Shown here: positions 2,627 through 37,814 of the stretch, piece by piece | Position numbering within the stretch: the first letter of the stretch is position 1 | How the letters are laid out: every line of letters begins with the position of its first letter | Assembly (NCBI GenBank): GCA_902798745.1 | Contig: CADBXM010000002.1 | Coordinates: forward strand, 62,001 to 126,000 | Reading direction: 5' to 3' | Length of the DNA stretch: 64,000 bases | From: an uncultured Eubacteriales bacterium | GTDB taxonomy: Bacteria; Bacillota; Clostridia; Peptostreptococcales; Anaerovoracaceae | Notes under the pieces: generated by a model | Seen by the model: only the letters and a program-made list of their open reading frames with translations | Told to the model about the DNA's origin: nothing | The model's database searches: none | Program-made: the position numbers and the translations under genes

Positions 2627-3406
2627 TCACCAGAGCAATTCCTCTGTCCGTAAGACGGGGCCGTCCTTGCATATCCTTTTATATCCTGTAACTGTTTTAC
2701 AGCTGCATCCCATGCACGCGCCGAACCCACAGCCCATGCGCTCCTCAAAGCTCATCTGTCCGCGTATCCCGGCCTCCTTGTATACTTTTCCGTATACGGC
2801 TTTAAGCATTGGCCCCGGGCCGCAAGTGTAGAAATGCGTAAAACCCGCCCCTCTTTCGAGAAGCTCAGCGAAGGCATCCGTGACGAAACCTCTGGTTCCG
2901 AAACTCCCGTCTGCAGTCGCTAAAACCACCTCGCATCCGAGCGCTTTGAATTCATCCACGTAATACATCTCTTCAGCTGTATTGAAACCCAGGATCACCG
3001 TAACGGACTTTACATTTGCCGTCTGTAGCAACTTTTTTGCCGCAAGATAAAGCGGCGGGATGCCGACTCCGCCTCCAATAAGAAGCGGACGCTCCCCCGC
3101 GTCATTAAGATCATATCCGTTTCCCAGACCCGTAAGCACATCCAATTCGGCGCCCGGAGCAAGGCGCGTCATCTCTTCAGTTCCTTGCCCGAGCACTTTA
3201 TAAATGATCGTTACAGCGCCGGCCGGATCATCGCAGCCTTCGACATCGCAGACGCTGATCGGGCGGCGCAGGAAGTGCTCGTCCAGCCTTATATCTATGA
3301 ACTGGCCGGGCGCCGTTACCGCCGATACATCCCCTTTGAGTTTCATCCGCCATGTACTCGGTGTCAGCTGCGTATTTTCTGTTATTGTATATAGACTTTG
3401 TTTCAT
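2627..3406 (-). CDS. pyrK: Dihydroorotate dehydrogenase, electron-transfer subunit
   Basis: PyrK binds FAD and a [2Fe-2S] cluster and carries electrons from PyrD to NAD+. The 259-residue protein begins with a ferredoxin-reductase FAD domain (RRPISVCD at about residues 47-54), then an NAD-binding domain (LLIGGGVGIPPLYLAAK). The C-terminal GCGFGACMGCSCKT plus a later ICKDGPVL gives the four cysteines that hold the cluster. It sits between carB and pyrD in the operon, with the short spacing typical of coupled genes. Confidence 0.94.
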   Translation of the reverse strand: MKQSLYTITENTQLTPSTWRMKLKGDVSAVTAPGQFIDIRLDEHFLRRPISVCDVEGCDDPAGAVTIIYKVLGQGTEEMTRLAPGAELDVLTGLGNGYDLNDAGERPLLIGGGVGIPPLYLAAKKLLQTANVKSVTVILGFNTAEEMYYVDEFKALGCEVVLATADGSFGTRGFVTDAFAELLERGAGFTHFYTCGPGPMLKAVYGKVYKEAGIRGQMSFEERMGCGFGACMGCSCKTVTGYKRICKDGPVLRTEELLW

Positions 3407-3438
3407 TTTTCTCCGCTAAGGAACTCTATGATCGATTC

Positions 3439-6400
3439 TTATGCGTCGATAGTCGAGATCGTCTGTGTAGTCTCTTCAAGTACATCGAGCAGTACTCTGA
3501 CTGTATCGAGCGATGTGAAGAGCGTCGCGTTGTTCTCGCTCGCGCACTGTCTTATCAGCGCTCCGTCGTTGGCCTGAACGTGATCGCCCACCTTACGCGT
3601 GTTGATGATGTAAGCGATGTGGCCGTTTCTGATAGCCTCAAGTATTTCATCGGAGCCTTCGCTGATCTTCTTCATTTCGCGAGTACGGATACCGTTCTCC
3701 TTAAGGAACTTAGCCGTTCCCGGAGTAGCCTCTATATTGAATCCGAGATTATAGAATCTGCGGATCAGAGGCAGCGCTTCAGCCTTGTCATCGCCCGCGA
3801 GTGTCGCGAACACTGTGCCGTAGTTACGAAGTTTAGTGCCCGAGGCGGTGAGTGCTTTGTAAAGCGCACGGTTGAGTTTGTCATCATATCCTATCGCTTC
3901 GCCTGTCGACTTCATCTCAGGCGAAAGATATGTGTCGAGTCCTTTGATCTTGTTGAAGCTGAACACAGGCACTTTGACGTAGAATCTCTTCTTCTCTTCC
4001 GGATAGAGGTCGAACAGACCTTGTTCTTTCAAAGTTTTTCCGAGGATAACTTCAGTTGCAATGTCGGCAAGACTGTAGCCCGTCGCCTTTGAGAGGAACG
4101 GAACTGTCCTCGATGATCTCGGATTGACTTCGATGATATATACATCATCCTTGTCATCCACTATGAATTGAATGTTATAAAGGCCCACGATACCGATGCC
4201 CGTGCCGAGCTTTTTCGCGTACTGCAGTATCTTGCCTTTGACCACATTGCTTATCGAGAATGTCGGATATACTGAGATAGAGTCGCCGGAGTGGATACCA
4301 GTCCTCTCGACCAACTCCATGATGCCCGGAACGAACACATCTCTACCGTCGCATATCGCGTCGATCTCGACTTCCTTTCCGAGAATATACTTATCTACCA
4401 GTACAGGCTTGTCCTCATCGATCTCTACCGCTGTCTTAAGATAGTGTCTAAGCTGATCCTCATCGCCGACTATCTGCATCGCGCGTCCTCCGAGTACGAA
4501 TGAAGGCCTGACAAGTACCGGATATCCGATCTCTGCCGCTGCTTTCACGCCTTCCTCGATCTTTGTAACAGCACGACCCTTTGGCTGAGGGATATCGAGC
4601 TCTTCGAGCACCTTTTCAAAGCGGTCTCTGTTCTCCGCTCTGTCAATGGCCTCGCAGTCTGTTCCGATCAGCTTGACGCCTCTGTCTCTGAGAGGTTCGG
4701 CCAGGTTGATCGCGGTCTGCCCGCCGAGTGTGGCAATCACGCCCTCCGGCTGCTCAAAATCGATGATAGCCATTACATCCTCAACTGTCAGCGGCTCGAA
4801 GTACAGCTTATCAGCTGTGGTGTAGTCGGTCGATACAGTCTCCGGGTTGTTGTTTATGATGATAGCCTCGTAGCCGGCGCGCTTGATAGTCTGTACCGCG
4901 TGAACTGTAGAATAGTCAAATTCCACGCCCTGGCCTATTCTGATAGGGCCCGCGCCAAGCACGATTATCTTTTTCTTGTCCGTCAGCCTTGACTGGTTTT
5001 CTCCCGTATATGACGAATAAAGGTATGCGATATACTTTCCTGTATGCAGCGTATCCACCATCCTGAATATAGGAGTTATGCCCGCTTTCTTTCTCTTGTT
5101 GTATACCTCTTCCTCCGAAAGATTCCAGATCTTGGCGATCTCCTTGTCCGAGAATCCGAGTATCTTTGCCGCCTTGAGAGTCTTTACGTCGTTGACTCTT
5201 TCCTTCAGAGCCTTCTCCATGTCGACGATCTCCTTGAACGCCTCGAGGAATAATTCAGTGATCATTGTCACTTTATGGATCTCATCAATGCTGATGCCTC
5301 TCCTCAGGAGCTCGGCGATAGCGTACATGTTGTCGTCTCTGAATTCCGAGATGTATTCCATAAGCTTGTTGCGGCTCATCCCGTCAAACTTCGCCAGATG
5401 GAGATGGCATACACCTGTCTCGAGAGATCTGATGGATTTGAGGAAACTCTCGGTGAGTGTCGCGCCTATGCCCATTACCTCTCCGGTCGCTTTCATCTGA
5501 GTGCCGAGTACGTTTGTGGCATCCGCGAATTTGTCGAACGGGAATCTCGGGAACTTCGCTACTATGTAGTCAAGTGAAGGCTCTGTCGATGCCAGACCGC
5601 CTGCAACTTCGATCTCATCCAGAGTCATACCAAGCGCGATCTTGGCTGTGACTCTGGCGATCGGATATCCCGATGCCTTCGAAGCCAGTGCTGATGACCT
5701 CGAGACTCTAGGGTTTACTTCTATAAGGTAGTATTCGCTCGTCTCAGGATGAAGTGCGAACTGCACGTTGCAGCCTCCCTCTATCTTGAGTTCGCGGATG
5801 ATCTTGATAGCTGAATCATTGAGCATCTTGAGATCGTGATCGTTGAGCGAAAGTATAGGCGCAACGACTATGGAGTCACCTGTATGGACTCCTACAGGGT
5901 CGACGTTTTCCATGCCGCAGATAGTGATGGCATTATCAGTGCCGTCACGCATTACTTCAAACTCGATCTCCTTGTATCCCTTTACTGATTTTTCAACAAG
6001 CACCTGATGCACAGGCGAAAGGCTGAATGCTTTGATACCAATGTCTTCAAGCTCTTCTTCGTTATTCGCAAAACCGCCTCCTGTGCCGCCGAGCGTGAAC
6101 GCCGGGCGAAGCACTACAGGATAACCGATATCCAGCGCGGCCTTTTTTGCTTCTTCCATGTTATATGTGATCTCGCTCGGGATAACAGGCTCTCCGATCG
6201 ATTCACACATCTCTTTGAACAATTCCCTGTCCTCTGCTCTCTCGATAGAATCAGCAGGAGTTCCCAGTAGCTTTACGCGGCACTCCTCAAGCACGCCTTT
6301 CTTGTCAAGCTGCATGGCGAGGTTTAGTCCTGTCTGCCCGCCGATACCCGGCACGATTGCATCCGGTCTTTCATATCTTAAAATCTTCGCTATATATTCG

Positions 6401-15310: not shown

Positions 15311-16666
15311 TTATTTGAACATTTCCTCTGCATCAGGCCATTCGATATCGAGACGGCGAGCGATGCGTGTGATGTTGAGGAAGTGGATGTAGTCAACATT
15401 TCCTGCAAGGATGTTGTTACCCCATGTTCCGCAAGACTCGGACATCGTAGGTGGAAGTCCGTTGTGGCTTGGGCCCCATCCATCTGAAGATGGCTGGTTG
15501 ATCATGAGACGGCTAACTGGGATCTTAGCTGCCACATAGCGGATGTGATCTTCATTGTGGGAGAGAACTCCTGTACCGTGTCCGATACCACCCTGCTCTG
15601 TGAGGATCTTGAGAGCCTTATCAACAGCCTCTTCGAATGTTTCATAAGTGATCATTGTCATTGTAGGTCCGAGGAACTCGTGTGTGAGGATCTCCTCAGC
15701 GCCGATCTTGTCGATCTTCAGAGCGATTACTTCTGTTTCCTTAGGAACATCGAATCCTGCAGCCTTTGCGATAACGTCAGCGTCATGTCCGATGATCTCA
15801 GCGTTTGCCTTGCCACCTGGGAACATTACTTCACGGAACTTGTCAACATCTTCCTTCTTATCGAATACTACGATGTTGCCCTTTCTCCAAGCCTCGAATA
15901 CCTCAGCCTCTTTCTCTGCTGGATAGAGGAAGTGGTTACATCCGTCACAAAGGATACCGTTTTCGAAGCCGGAAGCCTCTGCCATGATAGGAACAGCTTC
16001 TTCGATATCGAAGTCTCTGTCGAGGATAACAGGAGGGTTACCAGGACCTACGCCGTAAGCTGGAGTACCACTTGAGTAAGCAGCCTTTACCATTCCGGCT
16101 CCACCTGTAGCAACGATCAGGTCAGCAGCTGCCATGAGCTGTCCGGACTTTTCGATCGAAACGTTCTCAACGCACTGGATGAGGTCTGCAGGAGCTCCGC
16201 ACTTAACGCAAGCTTCTCTGATGAGGTTAACTGTTCTCTCAGATGTTGCCTTTGCACGAGGTGCTGGCGAAACGATCATTGCGTTCTTGCCCTTGATGGC
16301 CTGCATGAAGTTAGCGATTGGTGTAGCTCCAGGGTTTGTAGCTGGCGAGATACAAGCAACAACGCCTACTGGCTTAGCAACTTCTGTGATGCCGAGTTCA
16401 GGATGCTCAGCGATAACACCTACGGATGGCTTATCCTGCAGGTACTCCCACATCATGCTGCATGCGAGCTCGAGCTTGCCGATCTTGTGATCTACTCTAC
16501 CAAGTCTTGTCTCTTCAACAGCCATCTCGGAAAGAGTTTCTCTGTCCTTGTAGACTGCCTTAGCTGCCTCAAAGCAAATCTTGTCGACCTGCTCCTGAGT
16601 GTAGTCCTTGATCTGGTCCATCGCTACGCGACCTTTTTCAACCATTTCCTGAATAGTTAATTCCAT
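15311..16666 (-). CDS. Aldehyde dehydrogenase family protein, CoA-acylating type
   Basis: The 451-residue protein resembles the acylating aldehyde dehydrogenases (EutE, the AdhE N-terminal half, sulfoacetaldehyde dehydrogenase). These turn an aldehyde plus CoA and NAD(P)+ into acyl-CoA. Visible landmarks are PVGVVACISPATNPG, IVATGGAGMVKAAYSSG, YGVGPGNPP, and the nucleophile in ENGILCDGCN at about residue 240. LTHEFLGPTM and GIGHGTGVLS fit the C-terminal region. It is the last gene of the operon, 81 bases after the AcnX small subunit, with GGAGG before the ATG. The aldehyde could come from the class III aminotransferase, but no residue tells which aldehyde is used. Codon use suggests strong expression. 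Confidence 0.8.
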   Translation of the reverse strand: MELTIQEMVEKGRVAMDQIKDYTQEQVDKICFEAAKAVYKDRETLSEMAVEETRLGRVDHKIGKLELACSMMWEYLQDKPSVGVIAEHPELGITEVAKPVGVVACISPATNPGATPIANFMQAIKGKNAMIVSPAPRAKATSERTVNLIREACVKCGAPADLIQCVENVSIEKSGQLMAAADLIVATGGAGMVKAAYSSGTPAYGVGPGNPPVILDRDFDIEEAVPIMAEASGFENGILCDGCNHFLYPAEKEAEVFEAWRKGNIVVFDKKEDVDKFREVMFPGGKANAEIIGHDADVIAKAAGFDVPKETEVIALKIDKIGAEEILTHEFLGPTMTMITYETFEEAVDKALKILTEQGGIGHGTGVLSHNEDHIRYVAAKIPVSRLMINQPSSDGWGPSHNGLPPTMSESCGTWGNNILAGNVDYIHFLNITRIARRLDIEWPDAEEMFK

Positions 16667-16747
16667 TCTTGTTACCTCCTTGAATAACTTGAATAAATAT
16701 CAGCACCATATCTCCTTATGATGCTAAAATAACATTTTTTGTACCGA

Positions 16748-17152
16748 CTACTGGATCTCTACATATCCCTCGTCAGCATTTACTGTGACCATATCACCGT
16801 CCTTGACCGTGTCATAGAACTCCTGATCAATGCGGTCGACCATCGGGATCTCCATGATGATAGCTCCGGCAACCAATACAGGATCAGGATCCTTTACGAT
16901 AAGTGCCGATGGCATATTGCCGAATCTGTCCAGATGATAAAGACCGTCCTGCTGTACTACAGAGCTTCCTTTTCCACCAGGGAAAATAAGCACTTTCTTG
17001 GCGATGATCTTTCCTCTGATCTCGTGGTCTTTCTCATCCATCATTCCGTCTTCAGGACGAACCTGATAGAACATGATACGTTCATTTGTCTTGATAACCT
17101 CGGCTGTCGCGCAGCCCTCAGATATCTTATGGCATGCAAATCTCTTTCCCAT
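16748..17152 (-). CDS. Aconitase X, small (swivel-domain) subunit
   Basis: The 134-residue protein (chosen start MGKRFACHK) matches the AcnX swivel domain formerly called DUF126: FPGGKGSSVVQQDGLYHL and a later AGAIIMEIPMVDRI are the family hallmarks. It pairs with the large subunit encoded just upstream to form a dehydratase. The ATG overlaps the large-subunit stop as TAATG, and GGGGAGG precedes it, so I reject the 12-codon upstream extension of the frame. Characterised AcnX enzymes include cis-3-hydroxy-L-proline dehydratase and archaeal mevalonate-5-phosphate dehydratase. The substrate here is unknown. Confidence 0.87.
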   Translation of the reverse strand: MGKRFACHKISEGCATAEVIKTNERIMFYQVRPEDGMMDEKDHEIRGKIIAKKVLIFPGGKGSSVVQQDGLYHLDRFGNMPSALIVKDPDPVLVAGAIIMEIPMVDRIDQEFYDTVKDGDMVTVNADEGYVEIQ

Positions 17153-18360
17153 TACTTTACCTCCCCTGTCAGAGCAGCTTCGATACAACCATCAAGGTCG
17201 CGCAGTACGAACTTCAGTCCTCTGCGTCTTGGATAGTAAGCACATTTCGGCGATTCTGTAACGCCTGTTTTTCCGATCAGGAAATGCCATACCGGCTGAT
17301 CCGGGCAGCTGTCCGGGATGATCTCAGCGCCTGCATCATTGAGCACCTTTGTAACGCCCATTCTCTCAGCCATCTGTGCAGCGTGACTGCTTACCAGAAT
17401 GAACATAGGAACTGCAAGCTTCTTGCCTTCGATATGATTCGCGATGTACATAGCCTCTTCAAGAGTGAAGTGTGGGCATCCGAACATGGCAAAATCGATC
17501 TTACCATCGTTCTCATCGCTGAACTTCTCTGCGAAGTCCTTGAGATCCTTATCAGTGATAACAACTTCATGTTTAGGCTTCTTGCCGCCGAGCGCTGTCT
17601 CGAGATCCGGAGCTTCAGGAGTGAATCCTACGATATGATACATTCCATAAGCACCTGATGTGTTGAGCTGTGCGCCGAAATTTCTCAGGGCTTCCGGTGT
17701 GATCACTTTAGGAAGTCCAACGAATACAGGAAGTCCTTCTCCGATCTTATCGCCCATCATGCCGAGGCAGTGATATTCATAAGCAGACTTCATGTCAGCT
17801 TCTACGTGAACTACTATGTCGCCCTTGCGGTTCTCATCGAGCAACAGTCCGTATTCAGGAACGAAACCTGTAACACCGGCACAAAGAGCACTGTTGGCAC
17901 TCTCTCTGTTTGTGCGTGCGCCCCATACGGAGTTTACATAAGGAGGAGCGCTGGACTCAGAGAACGCACAAACTTCTCCGAAGTTTGGAACGTTTGTAGC
18001 CACATAAGGTGTGCAGTTGTACGAAAGTACTGCGCCCAGTGTACGGTAAGCGTTATCTGTTCTATGCATATGCTCTATGTCAGCATCAGTGAGGTCAGGC
18101 CAGCCTTTTTTAAAATAATCAAGACACCAGCCCGGATTTACTGTAGGAGCCACACGGCACTTAGCGCCGGCAGCAACCAATTTTTCAGCGAACCACAGGT
18201 CTCCAGCCTGATTACTCAGAGCAACGTGAGCTCTCTTGATTGGAACCATGCGCTCTGCATCGAAGCACTCGCCAATGCCTACCTGGATCTTCATCGCGTA
18301 AGCCGCGCCTTCTCCGTACTTGCCGTCAAGCATGGCCTGTTGTTCATCAGTTAATTTCAT
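17152..18360 (-). CDS. Aconitase X, large (catalytic) subunit
   Basis: A 402-residue member of the AcnX catalytic family (formerly DUF521), related to aconitase but with a separate small subunit. It begins KLTDEQQAMLDGKYGEGAAY, the typical N-terminus, and contains SYNCTPY, ESSAPPYVNSVWGARTNRES and FGCPHFTLEE, the conserved family blocks with the cysteines that can hold an iron-sulphur cluster. These enzymes remove water from hydroxyacids. The frame reaches a TTG 3 codons upstream, but the ATG at 18360 has AGGAGG 9 bases before it. It follows the LarA-like gene by 35 bases, so racemisation and dehydration may act on linked hydroxyacids (inference). Confidence 0.88.
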   Translation of the reverse strand: MKLTDEQQAMLDGKYGEGAAYAMKIQVGIGECFDAERMVPIKRAHVALSNQAGDLWFAEKLVAAGAKCRVAPTVNPGWCLDYFKKGWPDLTDADIEHMHRTDNAYRTLGAVLSYNCTPYVATNVPNFGEVCAFSESSAPPYVNSVWGARTNRESANSALCAGVTGFVPEYGLLLDENRKGDIVVHVEADMKSAYEYHCLGMMGDKIGEGLPVFVGLPKVITPEALRNFGAQLNTSGAYGMYHIVGFTPEAPDLETALGGKKPKHEVVITDKDLKDFAEKFSDENDGKIDFAMFGCPHFTLEEAMYIANHIEGKKLAVPMFILVSSHAAQMAERMGVTKVLNDAGAEIIPDSCPDQPVWHFLIGKTGVTESPKCAYYPRRRGLKFVLRDLDGCIEAALTGEVK

Positions 18361-18395
18361 ACCTGTCAACCTCCTTTTTAATAGTTTAACAATAT

Positions 18396-19625
18396 CTACT
18401 GAATCACGATTCTTTCGTCGTCTTTGATATCTTCGAGTACTTTATCTGATACTTCTATGTATCCGAGCTCAAGTGTGTTCGCTATCTTTACGACCCTCAG
18501 GTCTTCAAGCTCAACGCCCCTGACGCATTTTATCGCTACTCGCTCTGCCTCGTCTTCATCCTTCGCCACAAGTGGTATCTTGCAGTCGTCGATGCAGCGG
18601 CATGCTATGCTGTTGGCGTATGTGGACTCGAAGTCGAGTTGGTCGAATACTTCTTTTACAGTAACATCGAACAGGCCGAGACCTATGGCGTTGCCGTGAG
18701 ATGCCGGAGTAACGCCAAGAAGTACCATTTTTTTGATATCAGGTATTGGCAACATATACTCCTTAAGGCATGAGCTTCTGCCAAGGATATTAGGGTCAAA
18801 ACCCGCACCCGATATCTCCTTACCTATCGCGCCCACAAGGAGGACATCGATCTTAGGTGGAATGAGTACAGGCATCTTTGTCTTTGCGATTTTGACGAGT
18901 TCTTTCTCGCGAGCAATCAGATTCTCTCTTGGAAGGATCTCAATATGGAAAGTTTCGTCATAAGCATTTTCGATAGTTGCGACTCCCGCAACTACAGGAC
19001 ATTTTTCCATGATGATGGTAGCAGCGTCCTCGATGATCTGAGCGAAGAACTCAGGGTCCTCTTCATGTATGGACGAACAGCCGACCTGATTGCCGAGTCC
19101 GATAACCAGCATCTTGCAAATACCACTCTGCAGTTCTCCGACAAAGTCTGTATGCAGTTTGATCCTATTTATAGGAATGATAGCATCAGCCTCTGAAGCC
19201 GCGCGGTCAAAGTAGACTGTCTTGCCCGATGGAGTTTTGCCGAGTTCAACTACATCAACGGTAGTGTTAACAGGCACTCCCATGTATTCCTCTGTGATGC
19301 CGTAACCGGTAAGTACTTCTTTCTGACCTTCTTCTGTTCCGCCACCGTGGCTTCCCATGGCAGATACGATGAACGGCTCAGCGCCGAGTTCTTTCAACTG
19401 ATCTATTGTAGTCTTTACGATCAGCTGGAGATTCTTGATCCCGCGACTGCCGACAGCTACGGCTACTCTGGCGCCTGGTTTGATCTTTTCCCTTATCTCA
19501 GGGCGACTCCATTCTTTAAGAAGAGTACCTTCAACATCTTCCAAGGAAGTATGATCGAATACCTGTTGTACTTTCCTTAATTTAGGAAGCGGATATGCAT
19601 AATCATCCGGTAAAAGCAGTGGCAT
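18396..19625 (-). CDS. LarA-like nickel-pincer 2-hydroxyacid racemase/epimerase
   Basis: A 409-residue relative of lactate racemase LarA. Candidate catalytic residues can be placed by motif: His93 in MGSHGGGT, His158 in IKLHTDF, Lys171 in GICKML and His187 in SSIHEE. Their spacing (65, 13 and 16) follows LarA His108, His174, Lys184 and His200, where the lysine holds the nickel-pincer nucleotide. LarA homologues racemise or epimerise various 2-hydroxyacids. LarB, LarC and LarE, which make the cofactor, are not in the window. The ATG at 19625 is chosen for the AGAGGTGA before it; the frame runs 16 codons further. It is the first gene of the operon with AcnX and the aldehyde dehydrogenase. Confidence 0.75.
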   Translation of the reverse strand: MPLLLPDDYAYPLPKLRKVQQVFDHTSLEDVEGTLLKEWSRPEIREKIKPGARVAVAVGSRGIKNLQLIVKTTIDQLKELGAEPFIVSAMGSHGGGTEEGQKEVLTGYGITEEYMGVPVNTTVDVVELGKTPSGKTVYFDRAASEADAIIPINRIKLHTDFVGELQSGICKMLVIGLGNQVGCSSIHEEDPEFFAQIIEDAATIIMEKCPVVAGVATIENAYDETFHIEILPRENLIAREKELVKIAKTKMPVLIPPKIDVLLVGAIGKEISGAGFDPNILGRSSCLKEYMLPIPDIKKMVLLGVTPASHGNAIGLGLFDVTVKEVFDQLDFESTYANSIACRCIDDCKIPLVAKDEDEAERVAIKCVRGVELEDLRVVKIANTLELGYIEVSDKVLEDIKDDERIVIQ

Positions 19626-20024
19626 ATAATCACCTCTCTCGTAATCTTTTGAAACGCTCTTATGACAACGCATCCGTCAGCAAGCGTACTTCTTCTAATG
19701 CACTTTAATTATAAATAATTATCTGAACAATATCCACGTCAAAATTTTAGAAGTTGTCCTCGAGGGCCAGTCAAGAACAATTTAAAAAACACTTGCCGTA
19801 TCAGGCGAAAATCGTCAACTCCGCATAATAAGCCGTTTGCAGGCCAAGGCTTTAGCGGAGTTATAAGTTTTTCTTATGGGAACGCATGCCAATATTGTTA
19901 TTTTACTGGTATTATTATGGAGAATAAAATAAAAATGTACTATTATAAATAGTGTATGCGTACTAATTCTACATGCATTAATAATAGTTATATATTGGTT
20001 ATAAAAAGGTAAGGAGGGAAAGCG
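19626..20024. promoter_or_regulatory. Divergent control region between the LarA-like and D-hydroxyacid dehydrogenase operons
   Basis: About 400 AT-rich bases without a gene. Toward the LarA-like gene there is TATAAT at 19708-19713 (minus strand) and, further upstream, TTTGACGTGGAT at 19732-19743. The latter resembles the box at the permease/aminotransferase promoters, matching 9 of 12 bases. A hairpin with an 8-bp outer stem (AACTCCGC at 19817-19824 with 19855-19862) and a 5-bp inner stem (19830-19834 with 19848-19852) is followed on the plus strand by TATAAGTTTTTC, like an attenuator or terminator. Nearer the plus operon is a perfect inverted repeat ACTATT-ATA-AATAGT at 19939-19953. AAGGAGGGAAAG precedes the plus-strand ATG. 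Confidence 0.55.
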
Positions 20025-33720: not shown

Positions 33721-34629
33721 TTACTTATGCTCGTTTTTCTTCTTACCTACCGCGAGATTTCCTCCCTCGATATCATATCCGGTGTAAAATCCGGAGCCTG
33801 TCTTCATTCCGAGATTGCCGGCCTCTACCATTTTTACGAACTTTTCAGGAGGCAGATCGTCAGGATCTCCACTCGCGTTGTAGTATGAGTATTCTATGTT
33901 GAGTATCGTATCGAGGCCGATAAGATCCATCAGTTTAAAAGGAGCCACATCGGTATGCCACTCCGCCATCCATCCTCTGTCAAAGTCTTCAGGCGAAATA
34001 CTGCCGTTCGCCCATACTTTGAGGCACTCTTTCTTTACGGCACGCCAGACGCGGTTGATAGAATAACCCTTCTGCTCAAATTCGGTGATTACCGGTTCGA
34101 AGCCGAGTTCATGGTAGTGATCGATAGCGCGCTTCTTCGTCTCGTCAGAAGTAGCTACATTCCACATCATCTCAACGTAGCTGTTTCTTACAGGATCGTC
34201 ATGATCCACCTGGAAAGTCATCTTCCTGCGTTCAGGAGATACATCCTTGCAAATATCACTCATCAGAAGAGATGAAGTATTCGAACTAAGCAGCACGTCC
34301 TCATCGCAAACCTTTTCGAGCTGAGCGAACATCGCCTGTTTAAGTTCAAGCTTCTCAGGGATGTTCTCGATCACCATGTATGCTCCCTCGCAGGCCTCTT
34401 CCAGGCTCTCTGCATAGCTGATCCTTCCCTTAAGAGCCTCTGCTTCTTCTTTGCTCAGCCTGCCCTCTTCGACGTAATACTCAGCGAAGCGCTCTATCCT
34501 GGCGCGGCACTTTTCACGCGAAGATTCGTTCCTGCTATATGCGCTGACTTCTTTTCCGTAAAGCGCGTTTCTGAAAGCTATCATGCTTCCCTGGGTCCCT
34601 GCACCTATTACTGCAACCTTATTTCTCAT
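33721..34629 (-). CDS. 3-hydroxyacyl-CoA dehydrogenase-like protein with altered active site
   Basis: A 302-residue protein with an N-terminal Rossmann domain (KVAVIGAGTQGSMIAF) and a C-terminal helical domain ending GNLGMKTGSGFYTGYD, as in 3-hydroxybutyryl-CoA dehydrogenases. NTSSLLMSDI at 117-126 is the conserved serine/asparagine segment. The usual catalytic HFFNP is replaced by VDHDDP at 141-146, so the catalytic histidine is either shifted or missing. It follows the ammonia-lyase-like gene by 16 bases, with AAGGAGG before its ATG, so the two probably act on linked compounds. The substrate may be a free hydroxyacid rather than a CoA ester (inference). Confidence 0.75.
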   Translation of the reverse strand: MRNKVAVIGAGTQGSMIAFRNALYGKEVSAYSRNESSREKCRARIERFAEYYVEEGRLSKEEAEALKGRISYAESLEEACEGAYMVIENIPEKLELKQAMFAQLEKVCDEDVLLSSNTSSLLMSDICKDVSPERRKMTFQVDHDDPVRNSYVEMMWNVATSDETKKRAIDHYHELGFEPVITEFEQKGYSINRVWRAVKKECLKVWANGSISPEDFDRGWMAEWHTDVAPFKLMDLIGLDTILNIEYSYYNASGDPDDLPPEKFVKMVEAGNLGMKTGSGFYTGYDIEGGNLAVGKKKNEHK

Positions 34630-34645: not shown

Positions 34646-36166
34646 CTAAAAAACAGAGTCAGCGATCTCTGCCGGTTTCTCAGAGCAGATCAGCTCGTAC
34701 ATCTTCTGTATATCTTTGTAAATATTTCTGTTGTCATGAAGCGCAGGCACCGCTTCGCGCACTGCGTCATACATCTTCTGTGTTGCCTTTCCGAGCCTTA
34801 CATATCCGCCTTCTCTGAGGTCGACCGCCTGCGCCGCGTACATAGCTTCCATGCCTACCATATAGCGCATATTGTCCACTATCTTTCTGCACTTTGAAAC
34901 GACAAGCGGCAGATTGCTCGCGTGGTCTTCGATCGAGCCTTGCATAGGATAGAAATCGATCGATGACGGATTGATAAGATATCTTGTCTCCGCTTCAAGG
35001 GCGGAACTGGTCACCTGTACCTCCTCATAGCCGTGAGAGCTTTTGTCATACGGTTCGAGGAATCTCGGGAGCCCCGTAAAAGCAGGATCGCCGAGCCTTA
35101 TCATGCGGAAGTAAACTGTACGTGACAGATGCCCGAGAGCGATCGCCAGCATCTCCACTCCCAAAGCGAGAGTCGGCGTCTCGAAGTTCGAACAAACGAA
35201 AGTATCTTCCTTATCCTGCAAAATGCAAGGATTGTCGGACGGCGAATTGATCTGTATCGACAGATATTTCTTTACGAATTCAAGAGCGTCGGTCACGGCA
35301 CCGGTCACAGCGAACCCACCACGGAAAGTCAGTGGATCCTGCAATGCGTGATCCGGTCTGTCCTCGTCATGAAGATAGCTTCCCTCGAGGAACGCTCTGC
35401 ACCTTCGCGCGCATTCTATCTGCCCCGGCAGTCCGCGAAGATCGTTAACATCCTCGCGCATGGCCTCTATATTTCCGTTCAAGCCCTCATATGCCAGGCA
35501 ATATACAAGATCTGACATTTTCAGAAGCTGCTCTGTCTCATGCACCAGCACTGCAGCGGTGCCTTCGCCCTGTCCATTCGAAAGCATGATCGTGTGCACG
35601 TCCTTGAGCCTTAGCTGGAGTGGTGTCAGCCCTTCCTTTTCCATAGCCTCTTTTGCCGGAACGACGTTGCCTTTATAGCGCACTTCTCCCTCACCTATGA
35701 ATGCAAGTCCAAGATGAGTGATAGTCGTTATATCATCTTCACCTACCGAGCCTCTGGACGGTATAAGTGGTGTGATGCCCGCGTTCAGGAAATCCCTGTA
35801 CGAGCAAGCGAGTTCGTCCGTAGCGCACGACGCTCCTATCAGCATGTTGTTAAGGCGGATCACCATCATCGCGCGAACTTCTTCATCGCTGTTGTAAGGA
35901 GGTAGCCCAAGCGCATGCGTGCGAAGCATCGTCATGTTTTCAAGATCGATCGCGTCATCATCGACAACGACATCTTTATTTTGCCCGACTCCGCGGTTGA
36001 AGCCGTAGATAGGCTTGCCACCGTCAGCCAGTTTCTGCATTATCTCACGACCTTTAGCCAGACGTTCGAAGGCATCATCGGATATCTCCACTTTGCGGCC
36101 TTTAAATGCCACATCCCACACGTCCTCAAGCTTAAGGTCTTTGCCATTAAGTACGAGTGTCTTCAT
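34646..36166 (-). CDS. Histidine/aromatic amino acid ammonia-lyase family protein lacking the MIO triad
   Basis: A 506-residue protein that aligns with HutH over its length: YGFNRGVG at 54-61, MLRTHALG, RLNNMLIGAS, then GSVG at 139-142. Normal HutH continues with Ala-Ser-Gly, which cyclises to the electrophilic MIO cofactor; here it is Glu143-Asp144-Asp145. The usual QDxYSxR motif reads QDPLTFR at 276-282, so the catalytic tyrosine is leucine. EDHAS near the C-terminus is kept. Ordinary ammonia elimination through MIO therefore looks impossible. The ATG at 36166 is preceded by GGGAGG; the frame runs 13 codons further. It sits between a PutP-type transporter gene and the dehydrogenase-like gene. 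HutU, HutI and HutG are absent. Confidence 0.8.
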   Translation of the reverse strand: MKTLVLNGKDLKLEDVWDVAFKGRKVEISDDAFERLAKGREIMQKLADGGKPIYGFNRGVGQNKDVVVDDDAIDLENMTMLRTHALGLPPYNSDEEVRAMMVIRLNNMLIGASCATDELACSYRDFLNAGITPLIPSRGSVGEDDITTITHLGLAFIGEGEVRYKGNVVPAKEAMEKEGLTPLQLRLKDVHTIMLSNGQGEGTAAVLVHETEQLLKMSDLVYCLAYEGLNGNIEAMREDVNDLRGLPGQIECARRCRAFLEGSYLHDEDRPDHALQDPLTFRGGFAVTGAVTDALEFVKKYLSIQINSPSDNPCILQDKEDTFVCSNFETPTLALGVEMLAIALGHLSRTVYFRMIRLGDPAFTGLPRFLEPYDKSSHGYEEVQVTSSALEAETRYLINPSSIDFYPMQGSIEDHASNLPLVVSKCRKIVDNMRYMVGMEAMYAAQAVDLREGGYVRLGKATQKMYDAVREAVPALHDNRNIYKDIQKMYELICSEKPAEIADSVF

Positions 36167-36179
36167 AAGCACCTCCCAG

Positions 36180-36197: not shown

Positions 36198-36237
36198 ATA
36201 TACATTATTAGTATAGCATAGCTGCGCTGAGCGGGAT

Positions 36238-36272
36238 GAAAAAATCGCTCGTTCCTCTAAGGAACGAGCGAT
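36238..36272 (-). terminator. Rho-independent terminator of the PutP-type gene
   Basis: A 12-bp perfect stem (ATCGCTCGTTCC at 36244-36255 with 36261-36272) and loop TCTAA. On the minus strand it runs into a T-tract. It lies 28 bases after the stop and separates the transporter from the ammonia-lyase-like gene. Confidence 0.93.
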
Positions 36273-36299: not shown

Positions 36300-37814
36300 T
36301 TAGCCGATCTGTGCGTCTCTTTCTCTTGATTTGTCAAATACAGCGATCTCCTTATCAAGAGTAGGAGTTACCTTGGCTACGATGACAGCAGCTATCATAG
36401 CGCAAATGAATCCAGGAAGAAGTTCATAAATGCCTGTCGCTGCGGTAAGGCCACCAAAGAGCCAGCCGAGGTCAACCACAAACCCCGTGATGATACCTGC
36501 AACAGCGCCCTTGTAGTTGAACTCTCTCCAGAAGAGCGACAGTATGATAACAGCACCGAACGATGAGCCGAACGCGCCCCAAGCGTTTTCGACCAGGTTC
36601 ATGATAGCCTGAGCTCCCGAGCCTTTCGAGGACGCGATCAGGTATGCGATCACAGCGATCACAACTACTACGATACGGCCTACCAGTACAGCTTCCTTCT
36701 CGCTTACGTTCTTCTTGAAGAGAGCATAAAGGTCAGCTGTGAATGAACTGGATGCCACGAGCAGCTGGGAATCAGCAGTCGATACAGAAGCGGCGATGAT
36801 GGCTGCCAGCAGCAGACCGGTTATAGCCGGTGGGAAGAACTCCCTTGCCATGGTTATGAACACCAGCTTCTGAAGTCCCTGTGGAAGGAGTTCGTCTGCA
36901 ACGAGCATTCTGCCGAAGTATGCGACCAGCACTGCTGAAAGCAGAGATATGAACACCCATACTATAGCGATGGCCGATGATTTCTTTATCTCGGAAGGCT
37001 TCTCTATCGACATGAAACGTACGATGATGTGAGGCATTCCGAAATATCCAAGTCCCCAGGCAAAGCCTGTCAGTATTTCTTGGATGCTTGCATTGAAGAG
37101 TCCACCTCCGAATACACACTGTACTACCTCTCCGTTAGCATCGGTATATTCAAACACCTTGTCGAGAAGCGATGTATCGAGGTTCTGATGAGTAGCAAGC
37201 ACAGTCAGAGGCACCGCCATAAGAGCTATCATCATCAGCATTCCCTGGAAGAAGTCAGTCCAGCACACAGCTGTGAATCCACCGAAGATCGTATAGATAA
37301 CGATCAGCAGAGCAAATATGATCATTGCTGTAGTAGTCGATATCTCCGGGAAGAGAGTTCCGAACACCGTTGTGCCTGCAACAAACGCGGATGCTACGTA
37401 AATAGTGTATGCAAACAGGAAGATAACAGCGCAGATCACCTGCAGCGTCTTCGAGTCCGCAGCGAAACGGTTCGCAAGAAACTGTGGGATAGTGATGGAA
37501 TCATCTGCTTCCTCCGAGAATACTCTCAGCCTTCTCGCGCAGAGTATCCAGTTGAGTGCAGTTCCGACTCCGAGACCGATACCGATCCACATCTGCCCGA
37601 ATCCGAATGCCAGTACAGAACCCGGAAGTCCCATCAAAAGCCATGCAGACATGTCCGATGCCTGAGCGGAAAGAGCTGTGACCCAAGGGCCCATCTTACG
37701 TCCGCCGAGGAAGAAGTCTTCCTGGCTTCTCTGCTTATCCTTGATGTAGAAGTATGCCACGACCCCGACAAGGGCGACAAAATACAATACAAAGGTCAGT
37801 ATTTCAGAATTCAT
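36300..37814 (-). CDS. putP: Sodium/proline symporter-like permease (SSS family)
   Basis: A 504-residue membrane protein with about 13 hydrophobic segments. FFLGGRKMGPWVTALSAQASDMSAWLLMG matches the N-terminal PutP region that holds sodium and proline ligands, and AAIIAASVSTADSQLLVASS carries the conserved sodium-site serine/threonine stretch. The family couples sodium entry to uptake of proline or another small acid. Its neighbour is the MIO-less ammonia-lyase homologue, so the substrate may differ from proline; the name rests on similarity. AGAGGAAAA precedes the ATG. Confidence 0.85.
   Translation of the reverse strand: MNSEILTFVLYFVALVGVVAYFYIKDKQRSQEDFFLGGRKMGPWVTALSAQASDMSAWLLMGLPGSVLAFGFGQMWIGIGLGVGTALNWILCARRLRVFSEEADDSITIPQFLANRFAADSKTLQVICAVIFLFAYTIYVASAFVAGTTVFGTLFPEISTTTAMIIFALLIVIYTIFGGFTAVCWTDFFQGMLMMIALMAVPLTVLATHQNLDTSLLDKVFEYTDANGEVVQCVFGGGLFNASIQEILTGFAWGLGYFGMPHIIVRFMSIEKPSEIKKSSAIAIVWVFISLLSAVLVAYFGRMLVADELLPQGLQKLVFITMAREFFPPAITGLLLAAIIAASVSTADSQLLVASSSFTADLYALFKKNVSEKEAVLVGRIVVVVIAVIAYLIASSKGSGAQAIMNLVENAWGAFGSSFGAVIILSLFWREFNYKGAVAGIITGFVVDLGWLFGGLTAATGIYELLPGFICAMIAAVIVAKVTPTLDKEIAVFDKSRERDAQIG

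What the first reader, a model, noticed from the sequence alone, without database searches (positions are those of the whole stretch)
34646..36166. HutH-family protein that cannot form the MIO cofactor
The protein aligns with histidine/aromatic ammonia-lyases throughout, but the Ala-Ser-Gly triad after GSVG is Glu143-Asp144-Asp145, with the sequence one residue shorter. The usual catalytic tyrosine in QDxYSxR is leucine (residue 279). Arg282 and the EDH motif near the C-terminus remain. Two independent active-site changes, in an intact full-length gene with a good ribosome site, suggest a new reaction rather than decay. A hydratase, lyase or isomerase without MIO is possible. I know of no characterised member with this triad.
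Basis: partly seen in the sequence, partly recalled or inferred. Interest (0 to 1): 0.78.

Follow-up and report, generated by a model that had tools for sequence, protein, structure and literature searches.

The report
Cofactor-free lyase descended from ergothionase
This bacterial gene encodes a relative of histidine ammonia-lyase that lacks the residues from which that family builds its cofactor, as the known enzyme ergothionase also does; it belongs to a separate branch that has lost a lysine found in every other ergothionase-type relative aligned here, and it likely splits an amine off a different, still untested histidine-like compound.

Summary
In detail: an intact 506-aa minus-strand gene, PF00221 fold, no MIO tripeptide, Leu279 for the catalytic Tyr, Arg282 and EDH kept. 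One correction: two residues (Glu143-Asp144) replace Ala-Ser-Gly; Asp145 is the family's ordinary Asp. The claim of no precedent fails: both changes are standard in ergothionase, a characterised MIO-free trimethylamine lyase and the best PDB match by sequence and fold. What remains is more specific. The gene belongs to a monophyletic branch nested inside the ergothionases. All 90 aligned branch members lack Lys385 (kept by the 123 other relatives) and differ sharply at 409, 310, 195, 191 and 226. The gene is under strong purifying selection. Its partners differ too: a 3-hydroxyacyl-CoA-dehydrogenase-like gene is adjacent in 7 of 8 loci, all 8 genomes carry aconitase X, and four of the 120 listed homologue clusters are fused to the aconitase-X swivel domain. 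Best reading: an MIO-free elimination lyase whose substrate changed from ergothioneine to an imidazole compound without the thione, hercynine being the leading but untested candidate. Not a new reaction class on present evidence; a new specificity branch with new partners.

The parts
34646..36166 (-). MIO-free HAL-family lyase of the Lys-less ergothionase branch ('clade A'), 506 aa
   Evidence: PF00221 422.9 bits; best PDB match ergothionase 6s7j, 543.9 bits, Foldseek TM 0.92; tree
35732..35740 (-). codons of Glu143-Asp144-Asp145 at the place of the MIO tripeptide
   Evidence: sequence; alignments
35330..35332 (-). codon of Leu279, Tyr in all 27 HutH rows
35012..35014 (-). codon of Val385, Lys in the 123 other ergothionase-type sequences; N62/D19/V7/H2 in the 90 branch members
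34940..34942 (-). codon of Gln409, Ala/Ser in the Lys+ sequences (one gap), Gln/Glu/His in the branch
35237..35239 (-). codon of Ser310, Asp/Glu in the 123 Lys+ sequences of the alignment
   Evidence: one Lys+ sequence read later (G685) has Gly
35582..35584 (-). codon of Leu195, the column that is Asn in 27 of 27 HutH rows and Ser in 118 of 123 Lys+ sequences
33721..34629 (-). 3-hydroxyacyl-CoA-dehydrogenase-like protein (302 aa), 16 bases downstream, likely co-transcribed
   Evidence: PF02737 + PF00725; adjacent to the lyase in 7 of 8 loci; dN/dS 0.041 over the 243 codons held for L006
36210..36215 (-). TATACT within TGCTATACT (extended -10-like); the same nine bases stand in L006; candidate promoter, by eye
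   Evidence: both intergenic stretches; not among the hits of the consensus scan
36172..36176 (-). GGAGG ribosome-binding site
36244..36272 (-). intrinsic terminator-like hairpin between the symporter gene and the lyase gene; L006 shows, by eye, a hairpin with a T run in the same place
36300..37814 (-). PutP-like sodium/solute symporter upstream; same order in L006; role in the pathway unproven
   Evidence: PF00474; TIGR02121 485.4 bits, below its cut-off of 515.5; L006 82%
17152..18369 (-). aconitase X large subunit (separate operon, possible pathway partner)
   Evidence: PF04412 419.6 bits; AcnX in 8 of 8 branch genomes
16748..17188 (-). aconitase X swivel subunit with GKGSS motif; its relatives are fused to the lyase in other genomes
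   Evidence: PF01989; GKGSS; fusions

Best explanation
The protein is predicted to be an MIO-free elimination lyase that descends from ergothionase and likely acts on an imidazole compound without ergothioneine's sulfur, hercynine (histidine betaine) being the leading untested candidate. Shown: the HAL fold family, no MIO tripeptide, a place inside the ergothionase group in the tree, absence of that group's Lys385, the change of five further columns, purifying selection, and a conserved dehydrogenase neighbour. Inferred: catalysis by acid/base residues kept from ergothionase and HutH (Tyr54, His84, Arg282, Glu413), with the beta hydrogen removed and a trialkylamine leaving from the alpha carbon to give an acrylate (urocanate if the substrate is hercynine). 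Inferred: Lys385, Ala409 and Asp310 belong to recognition or activation of the thione ring in ergothionase, so Asn/Asp/Val385, Gln/Glu409 and Ser310 mean a ring without thione. The dehydrogenase and aconitase X would act on neighbouring steps; their order is not known. I put about 0.7 on an MIO-free amine-eliminating lyase with a substrate other than ergothioneine, and about 0.3 on hercynine itself.
For: Best PDB match by sequence is ergothionase 6s7j (543.9 bits against 249.3 for the next) and by fold (TM 0.92, rmsd 2.3, 50% identity; model pLDDT 83.5, pTM 0.88). Tree of 141 rows (quick method, SH-aLRT only, midpoint root): the branch is monophyletic (29 rows, support 100) and nested among Lys+ ergothionases, with Lys+ P0083 as sister (support 91). 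Of 213 ergothionase-group sequences, 123 have Lys385, with Ala/Ser409 (one gap) and Asp/Glu310; 90 lack Lys385 and have Gln/Glu/His409 and no Asp/Glu310; His191, Leu195 and Tyr226 are fixed in the 90 and absent from the 123. Kept in both: Tyr54, His84, Arg282, Glu413 (one gap in the Lys+ group). Three of 8 branch genomes also carry a Lys+ ergothionase (G681, G683, G685), which argues for a different substrate. In L008 the order is urocanase, dehydrogenase, lyase, then a choline/betaine-family binding protein 20 bases on; that urocanase is 70% identical to HutU of the window genome and 73% to the urocanase about 7 kb from the lyase in L012. Hercynine is named among sheep rumen metabolites (PMC11839056, a preprint, passages read). 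dN/dS 0.052.
Against: No substrate or activity was measured. The residue switches all lie on one branch of the tree, so their co-variation is one event and not independent support, and the two groups were counted by presence or absence of Lys385. The window protein has Val385, not the polar Asn/Asp of most branch members. A basic residue was gained at position 82, two residues before His84 (81% of the branch, 4% of Lys+; Arg in the window), and could stand in for the lost Lys. Hercynine to urocanate needs neither aconitase X nor a 3-hydroxyacid dehydrogenase, which are the most constant partners; this is the main weakness. The window genome already holds a HutU-HutI-HutH set. Asp310, lost here, could equally have bound the trimethylammonium group.
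Confidence: 0.5

Rival explanations
1. It is a (de)hydratase or other lyase without an amine leaving group, working on a hydroxy acid or acrylate between aconitase X and the dehydrogenase, so that lyase, aconitase X and dehydrogenase form one CoA-free beta-oxidation-like module.
For: Dehydrogenase gene adjacent in 7 of 8 loci; aconitase X in 8 of 8 genomes against 24 of 247 in the order sample, the window genome included; swivel domain fused to the lyase in 4 of 120 listed clusters with the GKGSS motif kept; AcnX-L and the fusion overlap by 4 bases in L009. Asp/Glu310, which could bind trimethylammonium, is lost.
Against: The protein sits inside a group whose known member is a trimethylamine lyase and keeps its Leu279 and MIO-free loop; a betaine-family binding protein follows the lyase in L008; no hydratase of this fold is known to me (recall).
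Confidence: 0.22
2. It is simply an ergothionase: it splits ergothioneine into trimethylamine and thiourocanate, and Lys385 is dispensable or replaced from elsewhere in the pocket.
For: About 50% identity to 6s7j, same MIO-free loop and Leu279. A basic residue gained at 82, near His84, in 81% of the branch could be a replacement.
Against: Lys385 is kept in the 123 other group members, down to Achromobacter and Bordetella, and absent in the 90 here together with Asp/Glu310 and Ala/Ser409; three genomes hold both types. That this Lys is one of the essential ergothionase residues is my recollection; the paper was not held.
Confidence: 0.15
3. It is a degenerate or non-catalytic member on its way out.
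For: Loss of MIO, of the catalytic Tyr and of the ergothionase Lys could be read as decay.
Against: dN/dS 0.052; Tyr54, His84, Arg282 and Glu413 kept in 90 of 90; conserved partners and gene fusions.
Confidence: 0.03
4. It is a normal MIO histidine ammonia-lyase (HutH) with a variant cofactor loop.
For: PF00221 and HutH model matches below cut-off.
Against: No Ala-Ser-Gly or equivalent; TIGR01225 337 bits against a cut-off of 539; the genome has a canonical HutH with Ser-Ser-Gly in a hut operon.
Confidence: 0.01

Closest known systems
Ergothionase (ergothioneine trimethylamine-lyase), Treponema denticola, PDB 6s7j/6s7q
   Same: HAL fold, MIO-free loop one residue shorter, Leu in place of the catalytic Tyr, Tyr54/His84/Arg282/Glu413 kept, about 50% identity; the tree places the branch inside this group
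   Different: Lys385, Asp/Glu310, Ala/Ser409 all replaced; Leu195, His191, Tyr226 instead; neighbours are a dehydrogenase and, in some loci, aconitase X. Of 62 Lys+ loci, 36 hold a molybdenum-hydroxylase homologue, 14 a distant urocanase homologue (31-36%) and 1 a piece of the dehydrogenase
HutH, histidine ammonia-lyase (P. putida 1b8f; T. acidophilum 7tqr)
   Same: Fold (TM 0.88-0.91); Tyr54, His84, Gln276, Arg282, Glu413 columns
   Different: No MIO tripeptide, Leu279 for Tyr, Leu195 for Asn; scores far below the HutH cut-off
[quoted passage not shown] phosphomevalonate dehydratase)
   Same: The domain fused to the lyase in four clusters is its swivel domain (domain 4) and keeps GKGSS; the paper likens Ser70 of this enzyme to the general base of aconitase and finds S70A almost inactive (PMC8184944, passages read); that this Ser is the one in GKGSS is my reading
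   Different: In the window genome it is a separate operon; its substrate is unknown (210.8 of 700 bits on the cis-3-hydroxyproline dehydratase model)

Membership tests
MIO ammonia-lyase (HutH/PAL/TAL) | PF00221 domain and fold | tested here: met
   422.9 bits; Foldseek TM 0.90-0.91 to HAL 1gk2/1b8f
MIO ammonia-lyase (HutH/PAL/TAL) | Ala/Ser-Ser-Gly tripeptide that forms MIO | tested here: not met
   Glu143-Asp144 in its place
MIO ammonia-lyase (HutH/PAL/TAL) | Catalytic Tyr in QDxYSxR | tested here: not met
   Leu279; Tyr in 27 of 27 HutH rows
HutH | Score above NCBIfam TIGR01225 cut-off | tested here: not met
   337 of 539.15 bits
Ergothionase (broad MIO-free group) | Nested in the ergothionase group and closest to 6s7j by sequence and fold | tested here: met
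Ergothionase (broad MIO-free group) | MIO-free loop one residue short and Leu at 279 | tested here: met
Ergothionase sensu stricto | Lys at 385 with Ala/Ser409 and Asp/Glu310 | tested here: not met
   Val385, Gln409, Ser310
Ergothionase sensu stricto | Near a molybdenum hydroxylase or a distant urocanase homologue (a trend, not a rule: 36 and 14 of 62 loci) | tested here: not met
   The window gene's neighbours are a symporter and a dehydrogenase; among branch loci, molybdenum-hydroxylase genes do occur in L007 and L012
Ergothionase sensu stricto | Trimethylamine release from ergothioneine | not testable with these tools
   needs purified protein

The most novel reading that the evidence does not exclude
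A previously undescribed anaerobic pathway for histidine betaine or a related imidazole compound: an MIO-free lyase evolved from ergothionase, physically coupled (in some genomes fused) to the catalytic-base domain of aconitase X and paired with a dedicated 3-hydroxyacid dehydrogenase, so that elimination, hydration and oxidation run on the free acid without CoA.
Probability: 0.22. Interest if true: 0.78.

Novelty: new variant of a known kind. Interest (0 to 1): 0.5.

Why it matters
If the reading is right, gut and rumen anaerobes have a second trimethylamine-forming or related elimination enzyme that some database records now call histidine ammonia-lyase. It would be a clear case of a substrate switch inside an MIO-free lyase family, readable from a handful of columns, and it would give aconitase X a new physiological setting. 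It also shows that HutH-like labels cover at least two MIO-free groups besides true HutH.

Tried and rejected
Sequencing error or decay: rejected (independent assemblies, dN/dS 0.052). MIO variant: rejected. A wholly new MIO-free reaction class: not needed, since ergothionase shares the MIO loss and Leu279. Plain ergothionase: disfavoured by 385, 310 and 409, not excluded.

Led nowhere or little: the T. denticola ergothionase paper is not held, so its catalytic residues are recalled, not checked; 'thiourocanate' is in one held paper; a search for MIO-less HAL terms found one paper, on a PAL, seen in the listing only; hercynine with trimethylamine, urocanate and lyase: 20 of 22 papers listed, no hercynine lyase in the titles; hercynine lyase or catabolism terms: of 37 papers 15 were listed, all for 'histidine betaine' alone; aconitase-X swivel or aromatic amino acid lyase terms: 10 of 90 listed, none on this fusion by title. 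L030 carries cut-short dehydrogenase and aconitase X pieces, possibly an assembly fault, and was not counted with the branch. Family sample of the Lawsonibacter genome: 1 of 300 (itself) at E <= 1e-150. Rows dropped before the tree: 5 duplicates or fragments and 18 of the 22 remaining HutH rows of the family sample.

Full report
What was checked. The gene lies on the minus strand (36166-34646) and encodes 506 residues behind GGAGG; a longer ATG at 36205 is not needed. PF00221 covers residues 11-471. One point needs correcting: two residues replace the MIO tripeptide, and Asp145 matches the Asp that follows it in ordinary members.

Precedent. By sequence the best solved structure is T. denticola ergothionase 6s7j (543.9 bits; next 249.3, a probable histidine ammonia-lyase). 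By fold, on a model of pLDDT 83.5 and pTM 0.88, it is again 6s7j (TM 0.92, rmsd 2.3). Ergothionase splits trimethylamine from ergothioneine and lacks MIO (PMC13405746, passages read). It shows the same kind of loop (SIGEGDIT) and the same Leu (QDPLSFR). So the two 'independent' changes are the hallmark of a known MIO-free group.

What is different. An alignment of 252 sequences holds 213 of the ergothionase group (207 distinct). Position 385 is Lys in 123 and Asn (62), Asp (19), Val (7, including the window) or His (2) in 90. The 123 have Ala/Ser409 (115/7, one gap) and Asp/Glu310 (112/11); the 90 have Gln/Glu/His409 (48/41/1) and Ser, Ala, Ile or Gly at 310. His191, Leu195 and Tyr226 are fixed in the 90 and absent from the 123. 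Column 195 is Asn in 27 of 27 HutH rows; from recall this is HutH's active-site Asn195. A Lys+ sequence read later (G685) has Gly310, so Asp/Glu310 is not absolute, while it keeps Lys385 and Ala409. A scan for columns basic in over 60% of the branch and under 15% of the Lys+ group found one, position 82 (81% against 4%), two residues before His84; it could stand in for the lost Lys and is reported against my reading. In a 141-row tree (quick method, SH-aLRT only, midpoint root) the 29 branch rows form one clade (support 100) inside the Lys+ group, with Lys+ P0083 as sister (support 91). Because all these switches lie on one branch, they count as one event. Of the 120 homologues listed out of 653 found, 85 lack the Lys, 34 have it and one fragment does not reach it.

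Distribution. The branch is rare. In the order sample 21 of 247 genomes have a match at E <= 1e-100, and only the window genome's is a branch member; the rest are Lys+. In the class sample it is 6 of 391, again only the window's. Seven of 71 loci from the genome collection are branch members (L006-L012: rumen and gut Clostridia, Lawsonibacter, Acidaminococcus, Lachnospiraceae); 62 are Lys+, two are short partial matches.

Partners. The dehydrogenase-like gene 33721-34629 is 16 bases downstream. Its subfamily is adjacent to the lyase in 7 of 8 loci; in L010 the contig begins within aconitase X, in L006 the gene runs off the contig, and in L008 its reading frame stops at 226 residues. At E <= 1e-60 it occurs in 1 of the same 247 genomes, the window's own. 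Eight contig lengths are shared between the first 82 lyase clusters and the 120 dehydrogenase clusters, against a mean of 0.58 and a maximum of 3 for shifted lists. In 62 Lys+ loci the dehydrogenase appears once, as a cut-short piece (L030). Aconitase X (PF04412) is in 8 of 8 branch genomes and in 24 of 247 of the order sample at E <= 1e-60, the window genome included. This control does not match the seven other genomes in kinship, and four of five other genomes of the window's genus hold an aconitase X, three of them only a lower-scoring kind. In three loci aconitase X abuts the lyase (L009, L010, L011), and four of 120 listed clusters are single polypeptides of swivel domain plus lyase. The fused swivel domains keep GKGSS. 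In L009 six genes run head to tail with gaps of 8, 30, 39, -4 and -4 bases: type-2 HAL, symporter, unknown protein, dehydrogenase, aconitase X, swivel-lyase. In the window genome aconitase X is in another operon about 16 kb away.

Reading. A place inside a group whose known member is a trimethylamine lyase, an MIO-free loop and Leu279 all point to elimination of a good leaving group without MIO. The switch sits at 385, 409 and 310, while Tyr54, His84, Arg282 and Glu413 stay. If, as I recall, Lys385 serves catalysis on the thione ring in ergothionase, the branch should bind a ring without it. Standard urocanase in the loci of L008 and L012, a betaine-family binding protein directly after the lyase in L008, and the report of hercynine in sheep rumen make hercynine the leading candidate. 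The dehydrogenase and aconitase X are not explained by hercynine to urocanate alone, which keeps the module rival alive at 0.22.

Verdict. Observation right, novelty claim too strong, and a narrower novelty found: a likely substrate-switched branch of the ergothionase family with its own partners. New variant of a known kind; interest 0.5.

Noticed in passing
G000:C1:63720-65246 (L004, L155); also L009 2620-4176, L010 2317-3897 and 3985-5511, L012 10546-12072, L175 8937-10463: A second MIO-free HAL group: ASGDLAPL is replaced by Y(L/I)(S/A)(P/L)E, three residues shorter, with Leu for the catalytic Tyr. It groups with HutH, not with ergothionase, occurs at 64% identity or more in 7 of 8 branch genomes (in G680 only as a 198-residue piece) and in the same locus as Lys+ ergothionase in L019, L021, L025, L033, L058 and L070. 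The window genome's copy passes the NCBIfam PRK09367 subfamily cut-off for histidine ammonia-lyase (526.8 of 524 bits), so it is probably misnamed.
   Followed up: partly
L175, L179, L180 and loci L013-L074: A molybdenum hydroxylase of the xanthine dehydrogenase family stands in 36 of 62 Lys+ ergothionase loci, and a distant urocanase homologue (31-36%) in 14 of 62, ten of them Paenibacillus or Bordetella.
   Followed up: partly
window 15311-19673 and L153: Aconitase X large and small subunits lie in an operon with a nickel-pincer-cofactor isomerase of group 22 (NF052515, above cut-off) and an aldehyde dehydrogenase; in G682 a related aconitase X cluster holds imidazolonepropionase (TIGR01224 above cut-off), HutD, an M20 peptidase-family and an amidohydrolase-family enzyme. 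Suggests an imidazole or hydroxyacid route of unknown substrate.
   Followed up: partly
genome collection, 62 loci L013-L074: Lys+ ergothionase-type genes occur in Peptoniphilus, Sedimentibacter, Blautia, Clostridium symbiosum, Paenibacillus, Synergistaceae, Achromobacter, Bordetella and others, wider than the 'limited number of bacterial genera' of PMC13405746 (passages read). Activity untested here.
   Followed up: partly
L030 16001-16657: Dehydrogenase without its N-terminal half and only the first 70 or so residues of aconitase X, in the locus of a Lys+ ergothionase: remains of the branch's gene set or a chimeric assembly.
   Followed up: partly
L009 5859-6401, L155 1413-1958, L175 1556-2101, L179 10803-11405: A protein of about 180-200 residues, without any Pfam match in L009, accompanies the large symporter SSS2 in these loci.
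   Followed up: no
L006, symporter and lyase reading frames (2804-4369, 4502-6052): Both frames carry a short in-frame duplicated stretch near their start that relatives lack, perhaps an assembly artefact of this MAG.
   Followed up: no
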